From Candidatus Hermodarchaeota archaeon (GTDB lineage Archaea; Asgardarchaeota; Hermodarchaeia; Hermodarchaeales; Hermodarchaeaceae), in assembly GCA_016839365.1 (NCBI GenBank), contig JAEOUH010000069.1, forward strand, positions 1-64,000: DNA of 64,000 nucleotides. Direction: 5' to 3'. The notes under the pieces were generated by a model. It did no database searches, was not told where the DNA came from, and worked only from the letters and a program-made list of their open reading frames with translations. The translations under genes and the position numbers were made by a program. How positions within the stretch are numbered: the first letter of the stretch is position 1; every line of letters begins with the position of its first letter. Shown one piece after another: positions 35,436 to 49,346 of the stretch.

Positions 35436-36905
35436 GTGGACATGTCTCCCACACCCTCTCAACCCACCAACTGTGACACCGATTCCACACGATTTGACAC
35501 CCGACAGTATCAAGAACATATCCTCCGACGAATCAAGGAAAACCGGAACCATAACATCTTGGTAGAATTAGACTGTGGGCTAGGCAAACGCGTCCTCACC
35601 TACAAATTAGTCACCGAGCAGTTTCCACAAACCCGGTTCATCATCACAGTCAACTCGTCATCCTCACTTCAAGAAACCGCCCAATATCTGGAAAAAGAAT
35701 ACGGCGGTGTTGAAGGCTTAGGTATCCTGGCTCCCAACGTTCAAGGACCTCATCGTGAACAACTCTTGCGAGAATCTCGGGTAGTCTTGTGCACACCTCG
35801 AGTGCTAGCCAACATTCTTAAAAAAGGCAATCTGACGCCAACCAACTTCGACGGCTTGATGATCAACGAAGTAGACACTATCATTAGGCGGGTTGGACAG
35901 GAGCGGGTGCTTATCCAACCGTGGAGTTATCTCCTCGAATTCTTTAAAGACAATTGGATTATTGGGCTCAGCGGTACCCTTCGCGACGATCATGTAGTGT
36001 TCACTGAAGAGCAGCTCCAGATCCGTAATGAACTCCAAACCCTTGCAGTGTTTCTACCTAACGTCGAACTGATCAGCATGAACGAATTGGCCGACACTGA
36101 TTTGAGCGAGTTCATCAAACCCACAATCTTGGATGCGGTTCCAGTCACCAGTCCAGTGATTCGAGCCACCTCCCTGGTCATCGACGACCTCATCCAATCC
36201 ACCCGGGAAGAAATTCACCAAAGGGTTCGCGAAGAAACCGGTCAGTCGATAGGGGAACTTCCAGAATCCACACGTATTCTACATTTAATCCTCCACGAAC
36301 TCCCCATCTCAGAAGAACTCGCTCAAAAATACAGCGGACTCCTAATGACCCGGAAATATTTGTACGGCATGGCATCTAAAAGCTTCCGCCGCTACCTCCA
36401 CCACCCCACCCTCAAATCTAACATCGATGTTAACCGCATGATGCAGGATTGGCCTAAAATCACTCCCAAATCACTGAAAGCCCAAGAGCTTGCATTAAAC
36501 GCTGACAAAACCGTCATCCTTACCTCATACCTCAACGTCGTCAGTGAAATAGACAGCTTGCTCAAAGTGAGGGGAGTAAATACTTTTCAACTCACCGGAC
36601 GCACCCAAGACAAACAAGCAGTGCTATCACAATTCAAACAGGCCAAACCACCTGCCGCAGTCATTTTATCTCCGGTCGGTGAGCGTGACCTTGACTTACC
36701 CGATGCCGATTTGCTTATAATTTGTGATACCGTCAATACGACGAAAACGGTCTATCAGAAAATGAAGCGTAGCCGTGGTGGACGAGTTGTTTTCTTGGTG
36801 TATGCAGACACCTCAGAAGTGGAGAAACTCCGACGCCTCCTAGATAACATCATGGAGCGGTATCCCTGGTCATCACGACTCGGCGATATGAAAGATTTGC
36901 GCTAA
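35436..36905 (+). CDS. Degenerate SF2 (Hef/FANCM-like) helicase domain protein
   Basis: A 489-residue protein with an SF2 helicase layout: RQYQEHIL (Q-like motif), Walker A position VELDCGLGKR, Walker B position MINEVDT, motif III LSGTLRD and motif VI region YQKMKRSRGG. The layout resembles archaeal Hef, but key residues are altered: Walker A ends GKR rather than GKT, and the DExx Asp is Asn. No nuclease domain is present. It may bind nucleic acid without active unwinding. A start at ATG 35442 is also possible. Confidence 0.7.
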   Translation: MDMSPTPSQPTNCDTDSTRFDTRQYQEHILRRIKENRNHNILVELDCGLGKRVLTYKLVTEQFPQTRFIITVNSSSSLQETAQYLEKEYGGVEGLGILAPNVQGPHREQLLRESRVVLCTPRVLANILKKGNLTPTNFDGLMINEVDTIIRRVGQERVLIQPWSYLLEFFKDNWIIGLSGTLRDDHVVFTEEQLQIRNELQTLAVFLPNVELISMNELADTDLSEFIKPTILDAVPVTSPVIRATSLVIDDLIQSTREEIHQRVREETGQSIGELPESTRILHLILHELPISEELAQKYSGLLMTRKYLYGMASKSFRRYLHHPTLKSNIDVNRMMQDWPKITPKSLKAQELALNADKTVILTSYLNVVSEIDSLLKVRGVNTFQLTGRTQDKQAVLSQFKQAKPPAAVILSPVGERDLDLPDADLLIICDTVNTTKTVYQKMKRSRGGRVVFLVYADTSEVEKLRRLLDNIMERYPWSSRLGDMKDLR

Positions 36906-38112: not shown

Positions 38113-38736
38113 ATGACCACCCACAATCAGCATTCCAAAGAAGAATCAACAGCTCCTACGGTCTTTCCTGTCTACGTCTTTGAGAGAACTAGCAAATCAA
38201 TCTTCAACTATTGTCTCAACAAAGCCACAGGGTCATCTCCGCGTGAAGCCCTGGGCGTCGTTCTGGGCTTTCGTCGACAATGGCAGGGAGAGAAGTATAT
38301 CCGTATCACCGATTGGGCCACCGGACACGTAGAAGCCAGTATTGCCCATGCCCGGTTCACTCCAGAAGGTATCCTCGAATATCGGCTTACCCTGCACGAT
38401 CGGTATGGCAATAATCCCCATTCTCCTCGCGTCGTCGGCCTCTGGCACTCCCATCCCTTTGGTGGCGATCCGCAGTTCTCCTCAACGGATTTACGTACAT
38501 TCTTCAACACGCCTTTCTGTGCTGAGGGCAACGTCTTCTTTTTGATTGATCCCCTCAGCCGGATCTTCAAAGTGTATATGCTTCGACCACGGCCCGAACA
38601 GCCCGGCTTACAGCTAGAAAGGGTAGAATGGTGTACCTATCGTCCATCAGTCCCCGCTGGGGAACCAATGCTTCAGGATAACTCGCTAATCCATGAGGAG
38701 GAAATGCGTGATGACGAAGAAGCCCACACCGATTGA
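38113..38736 (+). CDS. JAB/MPN (JAMM) metallopeptidase, putative deubiquitinase-like
   Basis: A 207-residue JAB-domain protein. The zinc site is complete: Glu45 in PREALGVVLG, His112 and His114 in WHSHP, and Asp126 in FSSTD. Spacing between the HSH and Ser is eight residues, one more than the usual seven. Such enzymes cleave isopeptide or linear bonds after ubiquitin-like domains, or trim C-terminal tails. The C-terminal tail is acidic (HEEEMRDDEEAHTD). The gene overlaps the E1-like gene by 26 bases and faces the ubiquitin-like/E2 operon, which defines its probable substrate. Confidence 0.92.
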   Translation: MTTHNQHSKEESTAPTVFPVYVFERTSKSIFNYCLNKATGSSPREALGVVLGFRRQWQGEKYIRITDWATGHVEASIAHARFTPEGILEYRLTLHDRYGNNPHSPRVVGLWHSHPFGGDPQFSSTDLRTFFNTPFCAEGNVFFLIDPLSRIFKVYMLRPRPEQPGLQLERVEWCTYRPSVPAGEPMLQDNSLIHEEEMRDDEEAHTD

Positions 38737-39574
38737 TTTAGAGTATTTTGAGAAGGATCAGCATGATCGAACACGACGCTGGTTGGGGGCTACCAATCTT
38801 GAGGCCGTTCGTCAGTCAACGGTACTGATGGTGGGCGCAGGGGCAGTCGGGAATGAGGTCTGTAAGAATCTCGGCTTGTTAGGGGTTGGGAAAATCGTTT
38901 TGGTGGATCCCGATAAAGTGGCCGCCTCCAATTTGAACCGCTGTGTTTTCTTTCGTCCAGGAGACCACGATATTAAGTTCAAAGTCGATGCAGTGGCTGA
39001 GCGGCTCCCTGAACTCGCAACCGATACAGTGGTTGAACCACATGCCATACCGATACAGGTTGCACCGGACGAAGTGTGGGATGTTGACTTAGTGTTGGTC
39101 GGTGTTGACAACCATTATGCCCGCTACCTGCTGAATGCTAAAAATCTCAGCATCGAGCCACCCTTGCCAGTGATAAATGGGGCTATGGGAAAGGACTTCG
39201 TGTCAGTTGAAGTCCTCGCGCCACCAAAGACAGCGTGCTTGGTGTGTTCGTGGAGTAAAGACTTCGTCGATCATGTCATCACCAACGAAGTACGCACACG
39301 ATGTGATCCTTTCTTTGTTGACACTATGCCCCGATTTCCCATGATTAGTTTTGTTACCTCCGTTGTGGGCGCAGTGATGGCGTGGGAAGCCACAAAGATG
39401 CTTGCTGGATTACAGCAGTGGCGTCTAACGGGGCAATGGCAGGAGGGGCTCAAACCAGCACTTGGCCGGTTCATCCAATACGACTTACACAAGCATAAAT
39501 CCATGACAGGACCAATTATGGCAAATCCACGGTGTACAGAAATTTTCTGTCGCGATAAGCGGAAACATCTCTAA
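38711..39574 (+). CDS. E1-like (ThiF/UBA-type) adenylating enzyme
   Basis: A 287-residue enzyme. The Rossmann ATP loop is GAGAVG (42-47), Asp66 ends beta-2, and NLNR (74-77) supplies the adenylation Arg. Lys91 and Asp133 (GVDNHYAR) match other E1 catalytic positions. Cys176/Cys179 (CLVC) and Cys275/Cys280 may bind zinc. Cys198 (RTRCDPFF) is the best candidate for the thioester cysteine. ATG 38711 is nine bases after AGGAGG. It should adenylate and transfer the ubiquitin-like protein encoded at 42.6 kb. It lacks the extra domains of eukaryotic E1. Confidence 0.92.
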   Translation: MTKKPTPIDLEYFEKDQHDRTRRWLGATNLEAVRQSTVLMVGAGAVGNEVCKNLGLLGVGKIVLVDPDKVAASNLNRCVFFRPGDHDIKFKVDAVAERLPELATDTVVEPHAIPIQVAPDEVWDVDLVLVGVDNHYARYLLNAKNLSIEPPLPVINGAMGKDFVSVEVLAPPKTACLVCSWSKDFVDHVITNEVRTRCDPFFVDTMPRFPMISFVTSVVGAVMAWEATKMLAGLQQWRLTGQWQEGLKPALGRFIQYDLHKHKSMTGPIMANPRCTEIFCRDKRKHL

Positions 39575-39578
39575 CCCG

Positions 39579-41180
39579 TTAGATTAAACCAATGGTCTTC
39601 TGCCAGACCGTTGAAGTCGGTTTCTGATCAGCCCACAAGCGTAGGTTCAGAGTTACTTTGGGGGCTCCATTTGGCATAGGGAGGTTCATCCAAATATTCA
39701 CAGGGGAATCTAATCGAGGTGCGAAGGGTTCAATAGCCACTACCTGGTCCATAAGGCCGTCTGAAACGGTTGCTGTCATCACCATTTGGTCTAACGGATG
39801 GGCACTGCTTGGTTTTGGAATCAATGAGACCTTCAAGGGCAACGTACTCCCACGTGGGACAGCATCAGGGGCGTTAACCTCTAATTCTGCGGGGGCTTCT
39901 CTCAACCGGGCGGGAACCGATTCGGGGACACCCACCACTCGTTTTACTTTCCACCCGGTCTCAATCTTGGGCTCAGAACGCTCTCCCTTTTTTCCATCAA
40001 TGGCAACAGTATCAGAGTACCAACTGACTTTGAATTCTTGGCGGACGCGAGTATCCATCCAGTTTCCGATGATAAGGGGAATATGACGGTTTGTCACTCC
40101 TAACAATCCCATGGCCCCATGCCAGGTCGGATCAACAGGGATCCATTGACCCCGAATCCAAATTTCACTCCAAGCATGACGCTCCCAGGACTGCCCATTA
40201 TAAGCATAACCCGCTTCCAATCGGGCTGGTATTTTGTTCGCGCGACACAACGCCGCAAATAAAGCGGCATATTCAGTGCAATCACCAACCTGCTTTTCGA
40301 TAGCATAAGCTGCTCCTCTTTCATACTCTTGACGAACATACCGCATCTTCTTTGTAACTGCCCTCATCGCTGCTTGTGCAAATTGTATCGGTGTTGAATG
40401 ATCTTTAGCAATATCTCGGGCAAGATCTTTGATGAGGTGGTGGTGTGATTCTATGAAATTTTCTGGTTGGGTGAACTTAACGATATTGGATGGAAAGGCT
40501 GAGTTGCGAGTTTCTGGCGGAATATTATACCGTAGTGCGCGATTCCGAATGAGAGCTGTGTACCCACAGGTAAAGGCTTCTCCAACAGCAAGACTAGCTT
40601 GATGAAATCGTATCCATTGATTTCCGATTGTATCATTCTGTTGTTGTCCATCCTTCGGAGAGAACTGGATATCAAGTACCGTTTGCCGAGGAGGCAGCGA
40701 AGGCGGAGCAGCTATTATAACTCGAACATTGCTGATTCGAGCACGTGTAATGTTCTTCACAGTCGCTGAATAATTGACCCTGTGCACTACAATTGGTGGA
40801 TGTCCTCCTTCAAAGCGAAAGCATCCCATGACATAATGATCGTCGGGAGGTCCTCGATAGGGATACTTATCGATTGCGGCTTTGATGCGGGTTTCCTGCA
40901 ATGCAACAACGATTGTATAGAATCCAGACAGCAGATTTGCCGTCAGTGGCACACTAAATTCACCTGTATTAGTCTTACCAAAATGAAACGGGACCTTACT
41001 CACCATTCGCCCGAAGGGATCAATGATGTAGACGATCCCATTGTCAACCTTTACATTCGATTTTGCTTGACCCTTTCGTTTCAACTGAATAGAAATCCGT
41101 TGACCGGCTTTAACACTCGGAACACCATCTTGCCTCGTAGGGGCGATAATTTTCAAAGACACGGGAAGATTACTCGTCAT
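39579..41180 (-). CDS. Transglutaminase-like cysteine protease with N-terminal Ig-like domain
   Basis: A 533-residue protein without signal peptide. The N-terminal 110 residues look like a beta-sandwich (VKAGQRISIQLKRKGQ). The transglutaminase-like core has the triad Cys in VGDCTEYAALFAAL, His in RHAWSEIWI and Asp in VDPTWHG. A C-terminal beta domain follows. Transglutaminase-fold proteases recur near prokaryotic ubiquitin-like genes as putative processing or deconjugating enzymes. It is the last gene of the Ubl operon and overlaps the RING gene by 11 bases. Its stop lies five bases from the E1 gene's convergent stop. Confidence 0.88.
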   Translation of the reverse strand: MTSNLPVSLKIIAPTRQDGVPSVKAGQRISIQLKRKGQAKSNVKVDNGIVYIIDPFGRMVSKVPFHFGKTNTGEFSVPLTANLLSGFYTIVVALQETRIKAAIDKYPYRGPPDDHYVMGCFRFEGGHPPIVVHRVNYSATVKNITRARISNVRVIIAAPPSLPPRQTVLDIQFSPKDGQQQNDTIGNQWIRFHQASLAVGEAFTCGYTALIRNRALRYNIPPETRNSAFPSNIVKFTQPENFIESHHHLIKDLARDIAKDHSTPIQFAQAAMRAVTKKMRYVRQEYERGAAYAIEKQVGDCTEYAALFAALCRANKIPARLEAGYAYNGQSWERHAWSEIWIRGQWIPVDPTWHGAMGLLGVTNRHIPLIIGNWMDTRVRQEFKVSWYSDTVAIDGKKGERSEPKIETGWKVKRVVGVPESVPARLREAPAELEVNAPDAVPRGSTLPLKVSLIPKPSSAHPLDQMVMTATVSDGLMDQVVAIEPFAPRLDSPVNIWMNLPMPNGAPKVTLNLRLWADQKPTSTVWQKTIGLI

Positions 41181-41565
41181 TATCTCGACCTACTTGGTCG
41201 GCTTCAGAGCGGGATTCGATTCCTTCTTCTTCTGGAAGAATAACTACTTTTCCACCCAGTGGTTGAGGTGAGCGTCGGGGGACATCGCCCAATATTCTCA
41301 CAGATGTTCGTATCTCCGTAGGTTGGCTTCCTAAATCCAATCGGGGACCCAAAAACCGAGTAAAGTGTGGAGAGTGGGCTTCACCGCCACGAACGATTGC
41401 TCCGGGACAGGTGCCTTGCCCTGATTCTAAGAAGAGGGCACGACACGAAGGACAAATATAGCTACCACAGACTGTACAAATCCACCATTGGCTCCGTGCA
41501 TTTTCAAGTGAAACTTGAGTGGCACAAGCCGCACACCGCATTTGGGATGCACCATGTATACTCAT
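41170..41565 (-). CDS. RING-like zinc-binding protein (putative E3)
   Basis: A 131-residue protein. An N-terminal zinc domain has seven cysteines at 11, 14, 30, 33, 38, 41 and 53 in a cross-brace-compatible pattern. A disordered basic/acidic tail follows, carrying two SIM-like motifs, VRILGD (89-94) and VVILPEEE (107-114). The domain is homologous to that of the 153-residue protein in the SMC operon. By position it could be an E3 adaptor, like the small RING protein in the Caldiarchaeum ubiquitin cluster. ATG 41565 overlaps the previous stop (ATGA) and follows AAGGAG. Confidence 0.75.
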   Translation of the reverse strand: MSIHGASQMRCAACATQVSLENARSQWWICTVCGSYICPSCRALFLESGQGTCPGAIVRGGEAHSPHFTRFLGPRLDLGSQPTEIRTSVRILGDVPRRSPQPLGGKVVILPEEEGIESRSEADQVGRDNDE

Positions 41566-41780
41566 GATGGTCTCTCCTTAAGCTCACGTCGTTTCTTTTT
41601 ACCATGAATTCTAATGGAATAATAAGGCGAAAAGTTGGGAGGTCGTTCTTCTTCAAAAGGGATGTCTCTCTCTCGGAGAATCTGAATCCGGGTTTCCCTC
41701 TCAGATTCATTCGTTGATTTTTCAGGTTCTTCCTCATACTCGTCGGGGCTTTCTTTCTCCTCTGAAGGTGGATCCGACAT
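41562..41780 (-). CDS. Small acidic protein of the ubiquitin-like operon
   Basis: A 72-residue low-complexity protein: acidic and Ser/Pro-rich in the first half (EYEEEPEKSTNESERET), basic at the end (KKKRRELKERPS). It contains IQILRERD (32-39), a SIM-like hydrophobic core next to charged residues. ATG 41780 follows GAGGTG; GTG 41789 is an alternative. It lies between the E2-like and RING-like genes with overlaps, so it is a component of the same operon. No homologue recognised. Confidence 0.55.
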   Translation of the reverse strand: MSDPPSEEKESPDEYEEEPEKSTNESERETRIQILRERDIPFEEERPPNFSPYYSIRIHGKKKRRELKERPS

Positions 41781-41794
41781 AATTGACACCTCGT

Positions 41795-42547
41795 TTATCT
41801 CTCATCATCAAGAATCCGAACCGATGTACGTCTACTTGGTTTATCCAAAACGCGGGGCGCCCTTCGAACAGATTCCGCGCTTGATGATGAGGACTCAAGT
41901 ATGCGTACACGTCCCTGCCGTGAAGCCGCAGCTGGCCCATCCTTGTGCTGGGCTTCCCAGAGCTGATCAAGGGTTTCAACGATTCTGTCTGCATCTTGCT
42001 CATACCATGCCATAGCCGCCATATTTAGACCATGATCGGATTGAAACTGAGATGGTGGTTCTACTCGGTCTGGTTTTAACAATACAAAAAAGGGGAGATC
42101 TTCAAGGATACGATCTAATTCTCCACGAACCGAGTAGCAGGCATGTCCAGTCCCGCTCGCCGCCAGTCTGGGGTGATACAGGGGCGTTTCTGCTACAGGT
42201 CGAATGGCGCCTATGTTCTGAGGGTACTCTCGGGGCAAATCAAAGATGAATCGATGCTCATAACGTATGGCGCTTGTATCCTCAAGGTTTCTGGGTTTAC
42301 GAACGAAGCCGGGGAGATTACGCATAGTAAAGCGAATCCGTTTAAAAGCTCCATCGCGATATCGGGCGATGGTGGAAACGGTGAAATCGCGATTGCTCCA
42401 AGCTGTGTCTTCGCGGTGCGGAGGATCTGGATCCCACCCTCGTCGTCCAAAGAGATTGTTCATAGTGTCAAAAAATGTCTGAATCTGGGTTTCCACTCTG
42501 GCGTTAAACAGCTCAGTAGAGAATACTGGTCGGGTCACGATTATCAC
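41795..42547 (-). CDS. E2-like ubiquitin-conjugating-fold protein
   Basis: A 250-residue protein. Residues about 15-200 have the UBC layout: strand/helix start, FIFDLPREYPQ, then LYHPRLAASG (the HPN position; Asn is Arg), then GHACYS with the candidate catalytic Cys137, and a following long helix pair ending WYEQDADRIVETLDQLW. The C-terminal 40 residues are a flexible tail holding two SIM-like motifs, VRILESS (214-220) and VRILDDE (243-249). Loss of the HPN Asn, which helps isopeptide formation in canonical E2s, is a difference seen in other prokaryotic E2-like proteins. GTG start. Confidence 0.78.
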   Translation of the reverse strand: MIIVTRPVFSTELFNARVETQIQTFFDTMNNLFGRRGWDPDPPHREDTAWSNRDFTVSTIARYRDGAFKRIRFTMRNLPGFVRKPRNLEDTSAIRYEHRFIFDLPREYPQNIGAIRPVAETPLYHPRLAASGTGHACYSVRGELDRILEDLPFFVLLKPDRVEPPSQFQSDHGLNMAAMAWYEQDADRIVETLDQLWEAQHKDGPAAASRQGRVRILESSSSSAESVRRAPRVLDKPSRRTSVRILDDER

Positions 42548-42591
42548 CCTCAGTTCCTGTATTCGTCTCGGGTGTGTGAAGATTTTTTTTG

Positions 42592-42912
42592 TTATTGTCC
42601 GACTTCAGGGACTACATCGAGGAGGAAGAATTCATCATCGGTGATTTTTGGTTCTAGCTCCCCGAAGGTTATACCTGGACTTAGCCGGGTGGGTTCAGGG
42701 GCTTTACGGATGAGCACAAATTCTGCACGCTGGTCCCCGATTTTCGCTTTAGCCCAATCGTCAATACTGACGCCCTCATCACGGGCCTGGGTGACAAGAG
42801 TGCGGATGACTTCATCGACACGGGTATCTTCATCAATGCCGATTCGGAATTCCTTTTGACGGGGCTCAACATCGACGATGATTGAGCGCCAAAATCCTTC
42901 ATCTTTACTCAA
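42592..42912 (-). CDS. Ubiquitin-like beta-grasp protein (YukD-like) ending in Gly-Gln
   Basis: A 106-residue protein with a beta-grasp pattern: strands SIIVDVEP and EFRIGIDED, helix RVDEVIRTLVTQARDEG, then EFVLIRKA, LSPGITFGEL and EFFLLDVVPEV. It aligns with ubiquitin in this order. It ends PEVGQ, with one glycine before a terminal Gln and no diglycine, so a JAB peptidase could expose a single Gly. TTG 42912 follows AGGTGA by eight bases. First gene of the minus-strand operon. Confidence 0.78.
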   Translation of the reverse strand: MSKDEGFWRSIIVDVEPRQKEFRIGIDEDTRVDEVIRTLVTQARDEGVSIDDWAKAKIGDQRAEFVLIRKAPEPTRLSPGITFGELEPKITDDEFFLLDVVPEVGQ

Positions 42913-43154
42913 GACTGTTCACCTACAAAGGGAGGGTCACAGCACGCACTTTAACTTTACTCGAATCTTAGACGCAAGCTCGCCCTTCTTTAATCGTGAA
43001 AGAGAATAGGTCGGCTCAAAATCACAGACTGATGGCGCTTTGTCTTTGGTTGGTGTGAAAGTTTAAGAGTGATGGACTATTGTGACTTAATGTACTTGGG
43101 CAATACTGAACATGCTAGCTGCTCAGGATAATCCGCGGGAGTGCACTCGAGATA
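42913..43154. promoter_or_regulatory. Shared divergent promoter region of the Ubl operon and the SMC operon
   Basis: A 242-bp noncoding region separates the ubiquitin-like gene (minus strand) from the SMC gene (plus strand). No convincing TATA box could be fixed by eye; AT-rich patches lie near 42950 and 43065. Position alone argues for both operons being controlled from here. Confidence 0.5.
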
Positions 43155-46049
43155 ATGACCACTAGGCACAAGCCATCCTTATCAACTTCACCAATCGTGT
43201 TTCGTAGTATCCGTCTAGTGAACTTTGTCATTCACCGTGATACCACAATCCAACTCGATCAATCCCCTGTCATTCTTATTACAGGCTCCAATGGAAGCGG
43301 AAAAACCTTGATTCTCGACGCCCTGTTGCTCGCAATTGGCGTTGAATCTCGAAGAGCCCAACGTCAACGCAATTCGGCTTTCATCGGTCGATTCGAGAAA
43401 TATGCTGAAGTCATTCTAGAACTTAACAACTACCAACTCAATGGGCGACGAGTCTTAAGAAGCCCCGATCCTACCATGTCTGCGCTTCTTGATAAGGACG
43501 TTGTGTCGATCCGGCTACGAGTCGATGAAACAAACCGAATATCCTATTGGTTGAATGAAAAACGATCAGTGAATGGCCATCAGATTGCTCGTAAAGATAT
43601 TCGGAAACTCTTCCAAGCTGCTGGACTCTTTGGAGATTCTCCCTTAGCTGTTACTGAGGCTGAGACTTTAGACCACTTTGCCTCCCAATCTCCACGACGA
43701 AAGTTCGAGACTCTCCTGAACGAAACTGGGCTCCGTAATTGGATGGAAAAACTCGAGGAAGCCCGTCTCCTCGTATTACAGGCAAGAGCCAATGTCAAGC
43801 CCCTCGAATACCGGATCCGCCATGAAGAACAGCGCCTCCAGGTTCTGAAGGCAGCCTATGAAGCTTTTCAACAAAAACAGCAGCTCCAACAGAGACAGAA
43901 GGATCTCGACGTTGAAGCGGCCTGGGCTGAAGTGGCTTATCGTGAGGAGCTTGCTAGCCAACTCCAATCACAAGTTACCAGTCTGGAAACCCAACTCTCC
44001 GACCAAAATGAGAAATTGGACAAGTTAGACCAAAGGAAAACCAGCTTGAAAGAGAAGTGCGAAGCGATTGAAGCAAAACGGGAAAAGCTCCTAACAACCA
44101 TGGACTCGCTACACGATGAGCGGTTGCAAGCACAAGGCCATCGGCGAGGGCTAGAGAATGAACTCAAAGGCATGCTAAATCGAACAGAACGATATACCAA
44201 GCGTCGGAAGCCCGCAACAGGCAAAATTGACGCCATTCAGAAGGAGTTAGCAACGATTATCCAGGATCGAGATGGCATCGATGATCAACTCGCTCAGGTC
44301 CGACAAGATATTGCCTCAACGGAAGAGTACCTCTTTACCAAACCCCAACGGTATCCACATTTTGAAGAGACAATACTTCGGGGCTGCCTCCGATACCGGT
44401 CTGAACTTGATAAACTCGCACTCTCTGATGCAGTGATTGGGCCCCTTTTTGCGCTCATTCGTATGAAACCGGAGTATGCACAGTACGAAACCGCGGTCAA
44501 ACTGGCCTTGGGACGCTACTCCTATGCATTCATTGCTCTGAATCGAGAGGTCTTCGTTGAGGCTAAAAACTTGTATGATCATCTCTGGCCACATGAAAAG
44601 CCAGATCTGGTGGTCGCCCGGACAAATCCCACGACCGCGATAACGCGAGATCGCCCAACGGTTTCTTTACCCGTGATTGGTTGGGCAGCTGATCTCATTG
44701 AAGGGGATATATATGCCATTAGTTTCCTAAGCCGTGTCATAAACACAGCTATCGCGGAGGAAGGAGCCGATCCCAACACGCTAGTCGATGCCTCTCAACA
44801 ACTCAATTGCAACATCATTACTAGTGAAGGAACAAGTCATTATCTCCGAATCGGCGCCTTTGCCCGACCACCCCGACCCGTTACGGTAAGTTTGGATGTC
44901 TCTCTCAACGATTTGGGACTAGCCCAGGATGGCGCTGATACACGCATTCAACTCCGTGAACTTCGTGAACAAGAAGCTAAACTGATGCGAGACCGAATGC
45001 GCATCAATTCTGAAATAAGTCAACTTCGGGCAACCCTCCAAGACCTTCAGCAAGTGCACATATCTCATCTTTCTGATGGGGAAAGAACAGCCCTGGTCAC
45101 TAGTTCTGAACATCGAGTCGCTGAATTACAACAACTGATTCTTGAACTGGAAACTGAATGCGACAGGCTTAGCCAAGATTATCAGGAATATAACTTAGAA
45201 TTATCACCGATCCATTCCCGACAGCAAAAACTATCCGAACAACTCCAAAACCTTGACCTTCGACGATCACGCCGTCAGGTTGAAATCAACCACCTCGTTG
45301 CAGAGCTCAAGCAACGCGAAGATGAATATGAGCATCTCATTAAACAAACCAAACATTTCCGTAAGGCTGCCACAGCACTGGGAGAACGCCCTCAGGCTGT
45401 TCGAAACCCTACTGCGATTCGTGATGAACAAATCCAAATCCAGGCGATGATTGATACTATCACCGCCACAGCAGACGATCGGCAAGCCTTTGAAGACCAG
45501 GAACAAGTCGTCTCCCAACTCCAAGACTACCTCAAACAACGTCAGCTCCACTTAGAAAATCTGATGACGGACGTTGATCGAAGACTTCTCGAGTGGAGAC
45601 GGCAACTCCAAGAGACGGTTGAAATCCTCAACCACCGTATGAACCAATTACTCAGCCACTTCCTCAAGCAAGTCAAACTGCTTATTCGATTCCCCGATGA
45701 ACCCAGTCGTGCGGAGCTCCACCTTCAACTTGCCATTAACCGCAAAGGCGACTGGCGGACCTATCAAGAAATGTCTGGGGGCGAACGGGTCCTAGCCACC
45801 CAGACTTTCATTTTAGCCCTACACACTCTCGCCAAGAGTCCCCTCCATGTGATTGATGAATTTACCCAACGCCTCGATGAAGCAAGCCGTGCAGCTATTC
45901 TCAGTGTTGTTCAACGCGCCCTCGATTTAACCCAAAAAGACTCACTAATTCATCCACAGTTTCTTCTAATGGCTCCCTCCACGGTCGGACTCGAGATCCC
46001 AGAGACTATGCACCACGTCGTGCTGATCAAAGGACAGGTGAAAGTCTAA
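43155..46049 (+). CDS. SMC-family ATPase of Smc5/6 type
   Basis: A 964-residue SMC protein with Walker A GSNGSGKT (44-51), a first coiled coil (about 200-400), a hinge (about 410-590), a second coil (about 600-850), the signature MSGGER (873-878) and Walker B HVIDE (898-902). The C-terminal segment SPLHVIDEFTQRLDEASR and QFLLMAPS...IP match the Smc5/6 pattern (DEF..MD..NRR; QF.L.TP) rather than canonical SMC or Rad50. The Q-loop region reads AVTEAETL, with Gln apparently replaced. Length is shorter than eukaryotic Smc5/6. It probably forms a homodimer for DNA tethering or loop extrusion with the next genes. Confidence 0.88.
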   Translation: MTTRHKPSLSTSPIVFRSIRLVNFVIHRDTTIQLDQSPVILITGSNGSGKTLILDALLLAIGVESRRAQRQRNSAFIGRFEKYAEVILELNNYQLNGRRVLRSPDPTMSALLDKDVVSIRLRVDETNRISYWLNEKRSVNGHQIARKDIRKLFQAAGLFGDSPLAVTEAETLDHFASQSPRRKFETLLNETGLRNWMEKLEEARLLVLQARANVKPLEYRIRHEEQRLQVLKAAYEAFQQKQQLQQRQKDLDVEAAWAEVAYREELASQLQSQVTSLETQLSDQNEKLDKLDQRKTSLKEKCEAIEAKREKLLTTMDSLHDERLQAQGHRRGLENELKGMLNRTERYTKRRKPATGKIDAIQKELATIIQDRDGIDDQLAQVRQDIASTEEYLFTKPQRYPHFEETILRGCLRYRSELDKLALSDAVIGPLFALIRMKPEYAQYETAVKLALGRYSYAFIALNREVFVEAKNLYDHLWPHEKPDLVVARTNPTTAITRDRPTVSLPVIGWAADLIEGDIYAISFLSRVINTAIAEEGADPNTLVDASQQLNCNIITSEGTSHYLRIGAFARPPRPVTVSLDVSLNDLGLAQDGADTRIQLRELREQEAKLMRDRMRINSEISQLRATLQDLQQVHISHLSDGERTALVTSSEHRVAELQQLILELETECDRLSQDYQEYNLELSPIHSRQQKLSEQLQNLDLRRSRRQVEINHLVAELKQREDEYEHLIKQTKHFRKAATALGERPQAVRNPTAIRDEQIQIQAMIDTITATADDRQAFEDQEQVVSQLQDYLKQRQLHLENLMTDVDRRLLEWRRQLQETVEILNHRMNQLLSHFLKQVKLLIRFPDEPSRAELHLQLAINRKGDWRTYQEMSGGERVLATQTFILALHTLAKSPLHVIDEFTQRLDEASRAAILSVVQRALDLTQKDSLIHPQFLLMAPSTVGLEIPETMHHVVLIKGQVKV

Positions 46050-46840
46050 TGATAACTAATGATACTTCTACATTTCTCCGTGCCTTTCCGCGCCGCAAGG
46101 CCTGGTATGACACTTTCCAATACAACTACAAGCGAACACGACTATCATCTTTTGGAACCAAAGGGATAGTAATTACGCTATGGAATCTGACCAAAAAGTA
46201 TGAGGTTGCCCTAAAACAGCACGATACGTTCCCGATTAAGGAAGCGGAGATTGACCGTGAAGAAGTTGCCGATGCATACCGCGTCCTTGATACCCCCTGG
46301 GAACGAACTCTCGATGGGCGTTTCTACTATAATCTCGCTTCAATGCAACATCACCGGGATTCTCAATTGGCTGCTCCTGAAATCGCTCCCGAGGAATGGA
46401 TTTCCCAATTTGCCAATGAGGTCAAACGACGCGCGACTCCGGTACTCTTTTTAATTAATCAAGAGCGGACCATCCCACCTTTCCAATTGCCTCCTGCTGA
46501 TTCGCCGGTCGCAATGGACGATGCCCCTACCCAAGATGATAAACAGGCTATGCGCAAACACCGTATCTCTTATGAAGAGATCTCCATAGACGCTCTCGGC
46601 GCTAGAAGGGCGGATATCCTGAAACGGCTACAAGGCAAACGATACAACTATGCAGCCCTATCCGAAATCCTAACCAACTGGGAACTCGATTTACTCAGCC
46701 AGATGATTCGGGATAACATCTGTCCTGCAACGTTCGAAAAAACGGCTATCATTTTTCGACACCCTCCACCTAAAACAAATCCTGCTTTCACTGCTGTTGC
46801 CATTACCGCACAAAACCATGAGGAGGTTCCTCGAAAGTGA
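46049..46840 (+). CDS. Candidate kleisin-like subunit of the SMC complex
   Basis: A 263-residue protein whose ATG shares a base with the SMC stop. The C-terminal part (about 175-245, RADILKRLQGKRYNYAALSE and onward) looks like a winged helix, as in kleisins, where it binds the SMC cap. The middle (145-165) is Pro/Asp-rich and flexible. The N-terminal part is alpha/beta-mixed and does not clearly show a kleisin neck-binding helix, so the assignment rests mainly on operon position. Confidence 0.45.
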   Translation: MITNDTSTFLRAFPRRKAWYDTFQYNYKRTRLSSFGTKGIVITLWNLTKKYEVALKQHDTFPIKEAEIDREEVADAYRVLDTPWERTLDGRFYYNLASMQHHRDSQLAAPEIAPEEWISQFANEVKRRATPVLFLINQERTIPPFQLPPADSPVAMDDAPTQDDKQAMRKHRISYEEISIDALGARRADILKRLQGKRYNYAALSEILTNWELDLLSQMIRDNICPATFEKTAIIFRHPPPKTNPAFTAVAITAQNHEEVPRK

Positions 46841-47484
46841 CCTCAGATCCAATACCTACTGACACCATCTCTTCCACAAGCGAGGATTCAGAAGAAGAGG
46901 TGTTAGAGCAACGTCATCTCATTGGTCAGCTCTTTGCCGCCCTCACAGCAAGGTTTCGGAATGAGGAAGGCCAACTCAGCATCGGGGTCAAACGGCAAGA
47001 TCTTTTAGAAGCCCTTCATATCAATAAGACTGGCTTAGTCCGCCTCCTCGATTTACTCCGCCAGCAAATATCTCCCCTGGGGCTAGAATTGGTTGAATAT
47101 CGAATGGGACGGGACACGCTCTATTGTGTTCGAACCATTTACGGAGTTCCTGGCGAGCTCACTGATCCTGAATACGCCGTATTAGGAGTCATCATTTCCA
47201 CTGTAGAACAGGTGAGTAAACTCCATCGTCCACGCCGGGTGGCCACAAAAGACATCGAAACAATCCTTGTAGCCCGTGGGCGCCTCTCCCGCTACCAACT
47301 CGATCGTATTTTACGACGACTAACCGAGCTAGGCTATATTACGCGAACCGCACGACGAATTACTTACGGTCCACGACTCGAATTGGAATTTGATGCTGAA
47401 CGCCGTGAAGCCATCGCCAGCGCAGCAACCCTGTATCTCGCAGGGGCTACAGCTGATTCGGAGGAAGACCTGAATGAAACTTGA
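46837..47484 (+). CDS. Tandem winged-helix (KITE: ScpB/Nse3/MukE-like) protein
   Basis: A 215-residue protein with two consecutive winged helices: about 35-105 (VKRQDLLEALHINKTGLVR then GLELVEYRMGRDTLYCV) and about 110-190 (LTDPEYAVLGVIIST then LDRILRRLTELGYITRTARR). This layout is that of KITE proteins that bind kleisins: ScpB in bacteria, Nse1/Nse3 in Smc5/6. GLELVEY is close to the ScpB wing. The termini are acidic. GTG start overlaps the upstream stop (GTGA). Confidence 0.75.
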   Translation: MTSDPIPTDTISSTSEDSEEEVLEQRHLIGQLFAALTARFRNEEGQLSIGVKRQDLLEALHINKTGLVRLLDLLRQQISPLGLELVEYRMGRDTLYCVRTIYGVPGELTDPEYAVLGVIISTVEQVSKLHRPRRVATKDIETILVARGRLSRYQLDRILRRLTELGYITRTARRITYGPRLELEFDAERREAIASAATLYLAGATADSEEDLNET

Positions 47485-47935
47485 TCTCTCCACCGTTGGC
47501 ATCAGTTGTGTAGCCTGTGGAACCCGAATCACACTTGAGGAGGCAATCCAGAAGGAATGGCACCAATGTTTACGGTGTCAGTTCTTCATTGATCCCCATT
47601 GTCTTGGAATTGTCCAAAACACCATGGGTGGGGTCTGCCCCTCATTTAGCCAAGGAGTGACCCGTCATTCCTTGCAAGCTGCTGATATTCCTACAGAACA
47701 GATCCTCATATTCGTCAAAGATCAATATCAGAAAGGTCACGGAGGTGCTCTCATCGACTCCTTATTTTATACCAGACCTTCAGCTTTAAAGAAACCACAA
47801 CACCCAAGTCAAATGGAATCGAACTCTGAAGAACCTCTCACCCGAGAAGAAATCTGGCAACGCTTTGGACTCGTTTTAGTGCAGCGGTCCCAAGGTAAAT
47901 GGAAAACTTGGGAAAAAGTTGGCAGTACTAGCTGA
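47474..47935 (+). CDS. RING-like zinc-binding protein of the SMC operon
   Basis: A 153-residue protein. The N-terminal zinc domain has Cys12, Cys15, Cys32, Cys35, Cys43 and Cys55, with His42 and Asp40 nearby, and aligns closely with the RING-like protein at 41.2-41.6 kb (spacing C-x2-C-x16-C-x2-C-x7-C-x11-C, ending CP). The C-terminal part (LTREEIWQRFGLVLVQRS) may form a small helical domain. In eukaryotes the Smc5/6 subunits Nse1 and Nse2 carry RING-type ligase domains, so this is a candidate equivalent. It overlaps the KITE gene by 11 bases. Confidence 0.7.
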   Translation: MKLDLSTVGISCVACGTRITLEEAIQKEWHQCLRCQFFIDPHCLGIVQNTMGGVCPSFSQGVTRHSLQAADIPTEQILIFVKDQYQKGHGGALIDSLFYTRPSALKKPQHPSQMESNSEEPLTREEIWQRFGLVLVQRSQGKWKTWEKVGSTS

Positions 47936-47937
47936 TA

Positions 47938-48369
47938 TTGTCCAAGGGACATAAACTATTTACCTATCAACCACTCATGCCTTCCTATACGAATTGGCTT
48001 GCATCATTTTTGGAGTTGATGGGTTTGGGTGACGAAAAGGCTCCCAGTTGGGTAAAACACGCCGTTCGGCGTTGGAAGCAATTCTATAATGAAATTCAGT
48101 TCATCGATGGACAAATTGATACTGCAAATCCGTTGAGTGTAATTTTCCGAAATGAAGCTCTCTTAAATCAAGTAGTATCCCAATCACAGGCTGTCACCTC
48201 ACCCATTGAACCAACCCTTTCAAAGAAAGAAGAATCAGCTCCATCTCAACCTGAAAAGACTCCTTCGCCAAATCCCGAAAAAAAGCAGCGCAAAGGATGG
48301 TTCATTTCTAAACTCAAAGACCTCCAATACCTATTCAATCGCCCTCTTTGGTCCTGGGATTCTTTCTAG
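47938..48369 (+). CDS. Small protein, last gene of the SMC operon
   Basis: A 143-residue protein from TTG 47938, two bases after the RING-like gene; ATG 47974 is an alternative. The N-terminal 75 residues are helical and aromatic-rich (YTNWLASFLELMGLGDEKAPSWV), followed by a Ser/Pro/Lys linker and a basic-aromatic end (KGWFISKLKDLQYLF). No family recognised. It ends overlapping the convergent HDAC-like gene by four bases. Confidence 0.5.
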   Translation: MSKGHKLFTYQPLMPSYTNWLASFLELMGLGDEKAPSWVKHAVRRWKQFYNEIQFIDGQIDTANPLSVIFRNEALLNQVVSQSQAVTSPIEPTLSKKEESAPSQPEKTPSPNPEKKQRKGWFISKLKDLQYLFNRPLWSWDSF

Positions 48370-49346
48370 ATGGGATCATCCAAACCCATTTTGGAACGAA
48401 TCTTCTCGATGACATCTTCTCCCATCCGCTTCGTTTCTGCTGACTCCGTCGTAGGCTCATCCTGCACATCCTCAGACAGTTGAGGGAGACCCGCTAGTTT
48501 TCTCACGATACCAGAAATTGCATGCTTTGCCACAGAAACCTCAGAACCGCCAGAGAGTAGCACCACCAACCGTCCCTCACAGACTTCTTCCGCTGCCTGC
48601 ATCAAAATATCTGTCATTGCAGGAAAGGCACGCAACGAAAGATTAAACCCACCATAGTCTAGGGCATGGGCATCATGACCCATGTTCCACAAGATCATCT
48701 CAGGGCGAATCCGCCTGGCCCAAGGCAGCGCTAAACGACGTACGGCTTCGACAAAGGAGTCATCACTACTCGAACTTGGGAAAGGGACATCCACATGCCG
48801 ATGTGTCACCGTATCCAGGCTTTCCCGGAAACTCGCCTCGAAGTTTAAATGGTATACTCCTTCATCATCCCCAAGGACATCACGAGTTCCATCCCCTGGA
48901 TGAGGATCCGTATCAACAATGAAAAAACGATTAACTCCATGCATATGTTGCAAATTTCGAACAAGTAAAGCAGAGTTGTTGTAATAGCAAAAACCCCAGG
49001 ATGAACCACGACTAGCGTGGTGCCCAGCACAGCCAGTAAAGGCAAAAGCATTGGCTGCCTCGCCAATCCAAACCGCCTCACCTGCTCTTACCGCGGATCC
49101 CCCCGACACGAGTGAAGCAGAATCATATCCTGATCTTCTAACATGTTGAATGTGATCAGGGGTGTGCACCTGCAGGAGTAAATCCTCACCTACTCTGGGC
49201 GCTTCTTCCAAAATAACCTGAGTAGTCTCCAATGTTCCCGAATCGCGTAAATAGTCAAGTGCCGGTTGTACACGACCAGCTAGCACCGGGTACCCTTCAA
49301 CTGCCATTAAAGGATGGTAGAGTACGAGTGTTGGCTTCTTTTTCAT
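48366..49346 (-). CDS. Histone-deacetylase-family (arginase-fold) protein with altered active site
   Basis: A 326-residue protein of the HDAC/AcuC/acetylpolyamine amidohydrolase family. GHHAS (109-110 His pair), FCYYNN, Asp147/His149 in VDTDPHPGDGT and GHDAHALDYGG give the zinc site. The usual GGY catalytic tyrosine near the end is replaced by Ser (LSGGSEVS). It may deacetylate proteins or polyamines with altered chemistry. It is convergent with the SMC operon and its neighbour is an acetyltransferase on the other side. Confidence 0.85.
   Translation of the reverse strand: MKKKPTLVLYHPLMAVEGYPVLAGRVQPALDYLRDSGTLETTQVILEEAPRVGEDLLLQVHTPDHIQHVRRSGYDSASLVSGGSAVRAGEAVWIGEAANAFAFTGCAGHHASRGSSWGFCYYNNSALLVRNLQHMHGVNRFFIVDTDPHPGDGTRDVLGDDEGVYHLNFEASFRESLDTVTHRHVDVPFPSSSSDDSFVEAVRRLALPWARRIRPEMILWNMGHDAHALDYGGFNLSLRAFPAMTDILMQAAEEVCEGRLVVLLSGGSEVSVAKHAISGIVRKLAGLPQLSEDVQDEPTTESAETKRMGEDVIEKIRSKMGLDDPI

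What the first reader, a model, noticed from the sequence alone, without database searches (positions are those of the whole stretch)
38113..48369. Ubiquitin-like conjugation island divergently linked to the SMC operon
JAB and E1 converge on an operon of Ubl, E2-like, acidic protein, RING-like protein and transglutaminase-like protease. That operon shares a 242-bp divergent start region with the Smc5/6-like operon. In eukaryotes the Smc5/6 complex carries ubiquitin and SUMO ligases, so the linkage suggests a functional tie between Ubl conjugation and DNA-tethering in an archaeon.
Basis: partly seen in the sequence, partly recalled or inferred. Interest (0 to 1): 0.95.

Follow-up and report, generated by a model that had tools for sequence, protein, structure and literature searches.

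The report
SMC complex with own ubiquitin-like cascade
In an uncultured Asgard archaeon the genes of a chromosome-handling machine of the Smc6 type lie back to back with the genes of a predicted ubiquitin-like protein-tagging system, and the same gene partnership recurs in other Asgard archaea and in some bacteria, so the tagging likely acts on that DNA-bound machine, much as eukaryotic Smc5/6 works with ubiquitin and SUMO.

Summary
The window (Hermodarchaeota) encodes JAB and E1, a divergent operon Ubl–E2–acidic protein–RING-like–transglutaminase-fold protein and, 242 bp away, SMC–kleisin-like–KITE–RING-like. The divergent Ubl/SMC pair is in 8 of 8 genomes held of its class. In a Heimdallarchaeota family the genes form one co-directional cluster SMC–kleisin-like–KITE–RING–JAB–E1–Ubl–E2–acidic (9 of 9 genomes consistent, 6 on one contig); a Planctomycetota bacterium has the same order. 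All 28 genomes found with this E2 also encode this SMC; of 392 sampled Planctomycetota the SMC is in 8 of 8 with the E2 and 1 of 384 without. The SMC profile matches eukaryotic SMC6 best; the modelled KITE matches Nse1–Nse3–Nse4 entries best; the Ubl is modelled as beta-grasp with a Val-Gly C-terminal end. A hydrophobic, SIM-like motif recurs in tails of E2, RING-like and acidic proteins. Best reading: an Smc6-type complex with a dedicated Ubl cascade, a RING-like subunit likely being its E3. Conjugation, targets and motif binding are untested. The SMC also occurs without the cascade (26 of 45 Asgard genomes), and in 4 of 8 Planctomycetota the two sets lie apart.

The parts
38113..38736 (+). 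JAB/MPN+ metalloprotease, predicted Ubl-deconjugating (and perhaps Ubl-maturing) enzyme
   Evidence: PF14464 1.3e-08; E45 and HSHPFGG....FSSTD at 112-126; these residues invariant in 12 aligned sequences
38693..39574 (+). E1-like adenylating enzyme (alternative start 38711)
   Evidence: PF00899 1.5e-34; glycine loop, two Cys pairs and candidate catalytic Cys204 (in 39290-39307) invariant in archaeal and bacterial relatives
39579..41180 (-). Transglutaminase-fold protein with Cys301, His335, Asp350; possible Ubl-processing protease or crosslinker
   Evidence: PF01841 4e-24; residues located; also beside E2 in Heimdallarchaeota f10 (L092, L093) and, with a RING-like gene, about 7 kb from it in L094
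41170..41565 (-). RING-like protein of the Ubl operon, with two tail motifs (VRIL 41290-41301, VVIL 41236-41247)
   Evidence: CxxC-x15-CxxC-x4-CxxC-x11-C-x10-H; homologous to the RING-like protein 47474-47935 by profile-profile comparison, 97.7%, 1.5e-12
41562..41789 (-). Small acidic protein with conserved motif IQIL (41676-41687) and a PPN..P block
   Evidence: conserved in Hermod- and Heimdallarchaeota; related small frames beside the Ubl/E2 genes in Planctomycetota and Coatesbacteria
41795..42547 (-). E2-like enzyme, candidate catalytic Cys137 (ACYSV 42128-42142); tail motifs VRIL at 41897-41908 and 41810-41821
   Evidence: family profile: top PDB matches are E2 enzymes aligned over the HPx...C region, weak, best E 0.0037 (0.017); Cys invariant across archaea and bacteria
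42592..42912 (-). Ubiquitin-like modifier ending ..PEVGQ; predicted mature end ..VG
   Evidence: AlphaFold2 model pLDDT 87, beta-grasp; Foldseek top EccD5 Ub-like, ubiquitin, SUMO1, ISG15; V104 and G105 each in at least 90% of 48 aligned sequences
42913..43154 (.). 242-bp divergent region with one archaeal-promoter-like box per operon (42950-42958 on -, 43058-43066 on +)
   Evidence: AAAGTTAAA / AAAGTTTAA, similar in most of 7 aligned genomes; reading them as promoters is inferred; no shared operator recognised
43155..46049 (+). Smc6-type SMC ATPase
   Evidence: Walker A 44-51, SGGE 874-877, IDEF 900-903; profile best match SMC6 1.1e-47, prokaryotic Smc 1.6e-29, SMC5 3.8e-28
46049..46840 (+). 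Predicted kleisin-like subunit
   Evidence: conserved in sequence and position between SMC and KITE in archaea and some bacteria; no family or PDB match; identity inferred from position
46837..47484 (+). KITE (tandem winged-helix) subunit, nearest in fold to chains of Nse1-Nse3-Nse4 entries
47474..47935 (+). RING-like protein of the SMC operon with a conserved C-terminal block; candidate equivalent of the Nse1 RING, encoded separately
   Evidence: follows KITE in f1, f5, f6, f7, f10, f11 and in Planctomycetota G232, G233, G238; profile of both RING-like groups hits the RNF4 RING, 3.8e-04, 0.0077 with a wider alignment; one Cys is Asp in Hermodarchaeota
47938..48369 (+). 143-aa frame after the SMC operon, not conserved; membership doubtful
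   Evidence: no homologue in the other class loci; no Pfam match above cut-off

Best explanation
The locus encodes an Smc6-type SMC complex together with a predicted ubiquitin-like conjugation cascade whose genes travel with it, and the cascade likely attaches its Ubl to that DNA-bound complex or to proteins beside it. Proposed steps: (1) the E1 would adenylate the Ubl at its Val-Gly end, after JAB or the transglutaminase-fold protein trims the 1-3 extra residues seen in Hermodarchaeota; (2) the E2 would take the Ubl on its invariant cysteine; (3) the RING-like protein that follows the KITE gene would act as E3, standing in for the RING of eukaryotic Nse1, with the RING-like protein of the Ubl operon as a second E3; (4) the kleisin-like or KITE subunit, or a neighbour on DNA, would be the target, as the kleisin Nse4 is for Nse1; (5) V/I-x-I-L motifs in the tails of E2, RING-like and acidic proteins would bind the Ubl non-covalently, as SIMs bind SUMO; (6) JAB would remove the mark. 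Shown here: gene content, order, recurrence, co-occurrence, motif conservation. Predicted: folds and active sites. Untested: conjugation, E3 role, targets, binding.
For: Linkage through rearrangement: divergent in 8 of 8 Hermodarchaeota held; one cluster SMC-kleisin-like-KITE-RING-JAB-E1-Ubl-E2-acidic in Heimdallarchaeota f11, 9 of 9 genomes consistent, 6 contiguous; same order in Planctomycetota G233; SMC to E1 in G238, SMC to JAB in G232, SMC to JAB in f10 genome G060. Co-occurrence: 28 of 28 E2-bearing genomes have the SMC; Planctomycetota 8 of 8 versus 1 of 384 (Fisher 7e-16, or 4e-5 without the 6 genomes already known; relatedness not corrected). SMC closest to SMC6. KITE closest to Nse1-Nse3-Nse4 entries. 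The RING-like proteins of the two operons are homologous. Ubl modelled as beta-grasp. E1, E2 and JAB active-site residues invariant. E2 tail motif 37 observed versus 4.9 in shuffles (related sequences, pattern chosen after seeing the tails).
Against: The SMC occurs without the E2 in 26 of 45 SMC-bearing Asgard genomes and in Planctomycetota G351, so the cascade is dispensable for the complex. In 4 of 8 E2-bearing Planctomycetota and in Coatesbacteria G230 the two sets lie apart; in those 4 no kleisin-like, KITE or RING partner was recognised beside the SMC and no E1 or JAB beside Ubl-E2. In f10 the Ubl-E2 genes lie on another contig; in G061 E1 is unlinked, in G060 no close E1 was found. The RING assignment is weak: 3.8e-04 with one alignment, 0.0077 with a wider one, and the SMC-side RING of Hermodarchaeota has Asp at one Cys position. 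The E2 match to PDB E2s is weak (0.0037). The kleisin is assigned by position only. The Ubl end is VG, not GG. No biochemistry exists.
Confidence: 0.6

Rival explanations
1. It is an immune system against mobile DNA: the SMC complex would sense foreign DNA as Wadjet or Lamassu do, and the Ubl cascade would tag the intruder's proteins or trigger an effector, as in Bil or CBASS-type systems.
For: Patchy in Planctomycetota, 8 of 392 in an enriched sample; the E1 partly matches PADLOC E1-E2 and BilD models, and the SMC shows partial similarity to LmuB and JetC models; the cassette is absent from 26 of 45 SMC-bearing Asgard genomes.
Against: Present in 8 of 8 Hermodarchaeota and 9 of 9 genomes of a Heimdallarchaeota family, more like a core gene set; the neighbours examined are not known defence genes (histone-deacetylase-like, subtilase, aromatic lyase); no PADLOC match at E 1 for E2, Ubl, either RING-like protein, kleisin-like, KITE or transglutaminase.
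Confidence: 0.25
2. Two independent modules that are merely co-regulated: both answer the same stress through neighbouring promoters or one transcript, without physical contact.
For: The divergent region holds one promoter-like box per operon; in 4 of 8 E2-bearing Planctomycetota the modules lie apart.
Against: Tight single-strand cluster in Heimdallarchaeota and in Planctomycetota G233; homologous RING-like domain on both sides; the cascade was not found without the SMC.
Confidence: 0.12
3. Chance neighbours without any functional tie.
For: None beyond the possibility in a single genome.
Against: Recurrence in archaeal families and in bacteria with different flanking genes.
Confidence: 0.02

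Closest known systems
Eukaryotic Smc5/6 complex (Smc5, Smc6, Nse4 kleisin, Nse1/Nse3 KITEs, Nse1 RING, Nse2 SP-RING)
   Same: SMC6-type SMC, KITE nearest to Nse1-Nse3-Nse4 entries, a RING-like partner next to the KITE, ubiquitin-type chemistry at hand. PMC8750328 (passages): Nse1 ubiquitinates the kleisin Nse4. PMC8636563 (abstract and outline): SIM-like motifs in Nse2 bind SUMO.
   Different: One SMC and one KITE gene in the operon; the RING-like domain is a separate gene; the whole E1-E2-Ubl-JAB cascade is encoded with the complex; the modifier ends in VG; an SP-RING was not searched for.
Archaeal 'SMC5/6-related' SMC (Yoshinaga & Inagaki 2021, known to me here only through passages of PMC9389158; the original is not held)
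   Same: Archaeal SMCs grouping with SMC5/SMC6; the present SMC is likely one of these (inference).
   Different: The passages seen speak of the SMC alone; kleisin has 0 occurrences in PMC9389158.
Asgard/Aigarchaeota ubiquitin operon (Caldiarchaeum type; PMC5654768, passages)
   Same: Ubl, E1, E2, RING and a JAMM/Rpn11 protease encoded together in archaea.
   Different: Hermodarchaeota carry ubiquitin and UQ_con genes on another contig; the window's Ubl and E2 match neither family; SMC has 0 occurrences in that paper.
Bacterial Bub, Bil and CBASS ubiquitin-like systems (Bub from passages of PMC13373217; the rest recalled)
   Same: E1, E2, JAB and Ubl-type proteins in compact operons.
   Different: E1 and E2 are separate genes here, while the PADLOC models matched are E1-E2 fusions; an Smc6-type complex belongs to the set; SMC has 0 occurrences in PMC13373217.
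Wadjet (JetABCD) and Lamassu (PMC10586767, passages)
   Same: Wadjet has SMC, kleisin and KITE in one operon; JetABC chains are among the KITE fold matches.
   Different: No JetD-like nuclease seen in the operon; a Ubl cascade instead; SMC closest to SMC6.

Membership tests
Smc5/6 complex | SMC of the Smc5/Smc6 clade | tested here: met
   profile best match SMC6, 1.1e-47 over profile 8-943; SMC6 first also with bacterial members; no tree with eukaryotes was made
Smc5/6 complex | heterodimer of two different SMCs (Smc5 and Smc6) | tested here: inconclusive
   one SMC gene in the operon; a second match in this genome was not characterised
Smc5/6 complex | KITE subunits of the Nse1/Nse3 kind | tested here: met
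   one KITE gene; Nse1-Nse3-Nse4 entries rank first, with ScpB, MukE and JetABC chains close behind
Smc5/6 complex | RING on the same chain as the Nse1 KITE | tested here: not met
   the RING-like domain is a separate adjacent gene; none of 56 KITE relatives is longer than 243 aa (candidates up to about 376 aa were allowed)
Smc5/6 complex | Nse4-type kleisin | tested here: inconclusive
   conserved subunit in the right position, no sequence match
Smc5/6 complex | Nse2 SP-RING SUMO ligase | not tested
   not searched for
Ubiquitin-like conjugation cascade | E1 with nucleotide loop and candidate catalytic Cys | tested here: met
   that this Cys is the catalytic one is inferred
Ubiquitin-like conjugation cascade | E2 fold with catalytic Cys | tested here: inconclusive
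   Cys invariant; profile matches PDB E2s only weakly, 0.0037; fold not modelled
Ubiquitin-like conjugation cascade | beta-grasp modifier with a C-terminal Gly | tested here: met
   model and fold search; Val-Gly with 0-3 extra residues in the loci aligned, longer in some relatives
Ubiquitin-like conjugation cascade | JAB-type deconjugase | tested here: met
   Pfam over cut-off and invariant metal-site motif
Ubiquitin-like conjugation cascade | RING E3 | tested here: inconclusive
   RNF4 RING top at 3.8e-04 or 0.0077
Ubiquitin-like conjugation cascade | covalent conjugation of the modifier | not testable with these tools
   needs biochemistry
Asgard ubiquitin operon (Caldiarchaeum type) | PF00240 ubiquitin and PF00179 E2 | tested here: not met
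   window proteins match neither; both families lie on another contig of the same genome
SUMO / SIM system | hydrophobic SIM motif binding a groove of the modifier | tested here: inconclusive
   motif conserved in tails; binding not tested; SUMO is not set apart from ubiquitin, TmoB and EccD in the fold rankings
Bub / Bil / CBASS-type Ubl systems | match to known models of their E1, E2 and Ubl | tested here: inconclusive
   PADLOC-DB 2023: E1 gives partial matches to E1-E2 and BilD models, JAB to JAB models, none for E2 or Ubl; Bub models were not looked for by name

The most novel reading that the evidence does not exclude
Smc5/6 began as a prokaryotic machine that carried its own ubiquitin-like cascade: an Smc6-type complex whose RING subunit conjugated a dedicated Val-Gly modifier, read by SIM-like tail motifs on the E2, RING and acidic proteins, so that the SUMO/ubiquitin chemistry of eukaryotic Smc5/6 and the Ubl-SIM reading principle are older than eukaryotes and shared with bacteria.
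Probability: 0.35. Interest if true: 0.97.

Novelty: new variant of a known kind. Interest (0 to 1): 0.93.

Why it matters
Why eukaryotic Smc5/6, alone among SMC complexes, carries ubiquitin and SUMO ligases is an open question. A prokaryotic Smc6-type complex whose genes are tied to a Ubl cascade, in Asgard archaea and in bacteria, turns that into a biochemical test with a small set of proteins and suggests the partnership may be older than eukaryotes. It would also be a ubiquitin-like system attached to chromosome machinery in prokaryotes, distinct from the ubiquitin and UQ_con genes held elsewhere in the same genome. The conserved tail motif gives a direct test of SIM-like recognition outside eukaryotes.

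Tried and rejected

Limits of the counts. The Asgard sample is 227 genomes, many incomplete; one search scored at most 3 candidates per genome and at most 2, so SMC absences may be overcounted. For the 45 SMC-bearing Asgard genomes I took best E below 1e-30; G176 (6.7e-29) was left out. The Planctomycetota sample of 392 held 6 genomes already known to have the E2, so the frequency 8 of 392 is inflated. The tail-motif pattern was chosen after seeing the tails; the acidic and RING-like tails had no shuffle control. In the paper searches that ran I saw only the listings, at most 20 papers each; none listed was on this gene set, but the library lacks most subscription papers and all bioRxiv preprints. 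Rfam, PHROGs and viral collections were not searched.
Full report
What is there. The window lies in an assembly of 2.2 Mb, 84% complete. Contigs of its same-genus relatives have the same lengths as records titled Candidatus Hermodarchaeota or Hermodarchaeum yapensis, so it is an Asgard archaeon of that group. Pfam recognises JAB, E1 (ThiF), the transglutaminase core and the SMC; it has no match for the E2 and nothing above cut-off for the Ubl, the RING-like, kleisin-like and KITE proteins.

Recurrence in its class. Only 8 genomes of the class are held. In all 8 the Ubl gene is divergent from the SMC gene and the E2 follows the Ubl. Acidic protein, RING-like, transglutaminase, E1 and JAB follow in the same order in the window and in 5 relatives; in the other two (G005, G007) contig ends split the run into consistent pieces.

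Recurrence elsewhere in Asgard. Among 227 genomes of the phylum an SMC of this kind (best E below 1e-30) is in 45, the E2 in 19, the Ubl in the same 19, the close E1 (E below 1e-90) in 18 of those 19. The 19 are f1 (Hermodarchaeota, 8 of 8), f10 (2 of 2) and f11 (9 of 9); f10 and f11 records are titled Heimdallarchaeota, Asgard group archaeon or archaeon. In f11 the order is SMC–kleisin-like–KITE–RING-like–JAB–E1–Ubl–E2–acidic, all on one strand: complete in 5 loci, from the SMC C-terminal part onward in a sixth, and split by contig ends but consistent in the other three. In f10 one genome shows SMC–kleisin-like–KITE–RING-like–JAB up to the contig end, with Ubl–E2–acidic–transglutaminase on another contig and no close E1; in the other Ubl–E2–transglutaminase and E1 lie on separate contigs. 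In f5, f6 and f7 the SMC operon stands without the cascade, and no E2 was found in those families.

Bacteria. A scan of named species genomes with the E2 profile found 24 loci: 17 archaeal, 6 of Planctomycetota (one titled Brocadiia) and 1 of Coatesbacteria. In Planctomycetota G233 (Arabian9_MAG_43) the set SMC–kleisin-like–KITE–RING-like–JAB–E1–Ubl–E2 is one cluster in the Heimdallarchaeota order. All 7 bacterial genomes hold the SMC, E at most 2e-62. In a drawn sample of 392 Planctomycetota genomes the E2 is in 8 and the SMC in 9, namely those 8 and one more; 6 of the 8 were already known, 2 (G238, G509) are new. Fisher gives 7e-16 for the whole table and 4e-5 without the 6 known genomes; relatedness is not corrected. 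G238 has SMC–kleisin-like–KITE–RING-like–JAB–E1 together and Ubl–E2 on another contig; G232 has SMC to JAB near a contig end, and E2 at the start of another contig. G227, G228, G229 and G231 have the SMC without recognised partners and Ubl–E2 on other contigs; G509 is too fragmented to tell; Coatesbacteria G230 has SMC–kleisin-like–KITE in one place and JAB–E1–acidic–Ubl–E2 in another. So the cascade was not found without the SMC, while the SMC is found without the cascade.

What the SMC side is. The SMC family profile ranks eukaryotic SMC6 first (1.1e-47 over nearly the full length), before prokaryotic Smc (1.6e-29) and SMC5 (3.8e-28); with bacterial members SMC6 is still first, 4e-43 over the N-terminal third and 2.5e-37 over the length. 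PMC9389158 (passages) says that archaeal SMC5/6-related SMCs are known from Yoshinaga and Inagaki 2021, so the SMC itself is not new. The KITE model (pLDDT 84) has two winged helices; its best PDB matches are chains of Nse1–Nse3–Nse4 and MAGE-G1–NSE1 entries, then ScpB, MukE and JetABC chains. That 7dg2_A and 5hvq_C are Nse1 chains is my recollection. The next gene encodes a RING-like protein; in eukaryotes the variant RING sits on Nse1 itself (PMC8750328, passages).

SIM-like tails. The C-terminal tails of the E2 carry V/I-x-I/F-L/I motifs, often beside acidic residues, serines or at the very end: 37 matches in 24 tails against 4.9 (sd 2.1, maximum 12 in 2000 shuffles), 22 of 24 tails with at least one. 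The sequences are related and the pattern was chosen after seeing them, so this is no strict probability, but the motif persists between archaea and bacteria where the linkers do not. The acidic protein (11 of 11) and the Hermodarchaeota RING-like protein (7 of 7) carry it too (no shuffle control), as does the f11 RING-like protein in L094. The conserved Ubl stretch VEPRxKEFR runs into the predicted second strand, the strand that SUMO offers to SIMs (recalled); binding is inferred.

A separate ubiquitin. The 8 Hermodarchaeota genomes also hold ubiquitin (PF00240) and UQ_con (PF00179) genes; in this genome they lie on another contig, so the present cascade is a second, distinct one.

Mechanism and rivals. 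I judge most likely that the cascade modifies the SMC complex or proteins at its DNA site, with the SMC-operon RING-like protein as E3 (0.6). An immune role is the main rival (0.25). Mere co-regulation is less likely (0.12). The anatomy does not decide between repair, segregation and immunity.

Novelty. Ten paper searches (listings only) showed no paper on an SMC complex encoded with a Ubl cascade in prokaryotes; PMC11354881, PMC5654768, PMC1779556, PMC13373217 and PMC9192718, searched inside, hold no 'SMC'. The library is partial. I rate it a new variant: SMC complexes and prokaryotic Ubl systems are known kinds, the pairing as one gene set is not known to me.

Noticed in passing
L128:9612-10546, L129:1862-2799, L130:271-1223, L132:4999-5924, L134:9570-10537, L168:7428-8362: In 6 of 6 Planctomycetota loci with a recognised Ubl, the Ubl frame runs past Val-Gly into the E2 N-terminus and the rest of E2 lies in the -1 frame. 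In five the switch falls at a run of 9-10 A, in the sixth (GC-rich) at CCCTTTC just before the stop: likely a programmed -1 frameshift making a Ubl-E2 fusion.
   Followed up: partly
G000:C71, about 37.4-40.7 kb: A second ubiquitin system: ubiquitin (PF00240), two UQ_con matches (PF00179) and a ThiF/E1 match lie together on another contig of the same genome.
   Followed up: partly
48366-49346 (-): A histone-deacetylase-family gene lies directly beyond the SMC operon, also in the five other Hermodarchaeota loci that reach it (L014-L018).
   Followed up: no
35436-36905 (+): An SF2 helicase (ResIII/XPB-like) lies close to the JAB gene in the Hermodarchaeota loci that reach it, in some with small membrane-protein genes between.
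   Followed up: no
47938-48369 (+): A 143-aa frame after the SMC operon without a homologue in the related loci; perhaps not a gene.
   Followed up: partly
L162, L171 (G351): One sampled Planctomycetota genome has the Smc6-type SMC but no E2 match; a second, partial SMC frame lies just downstream.
   Followed up: no
P0030: A relative of the Ubl carries a zinc-ribbon-like extension right after Val-Gly, as a precursor needing cleavage would.
   Followed up: no
L049:17818-19572, L056:16237-17964: Beyond the Heimdallarchaeota cluster sits an aromatic amino acid lyase with a rubredoxin domain inserted in it.
   Followed up: no
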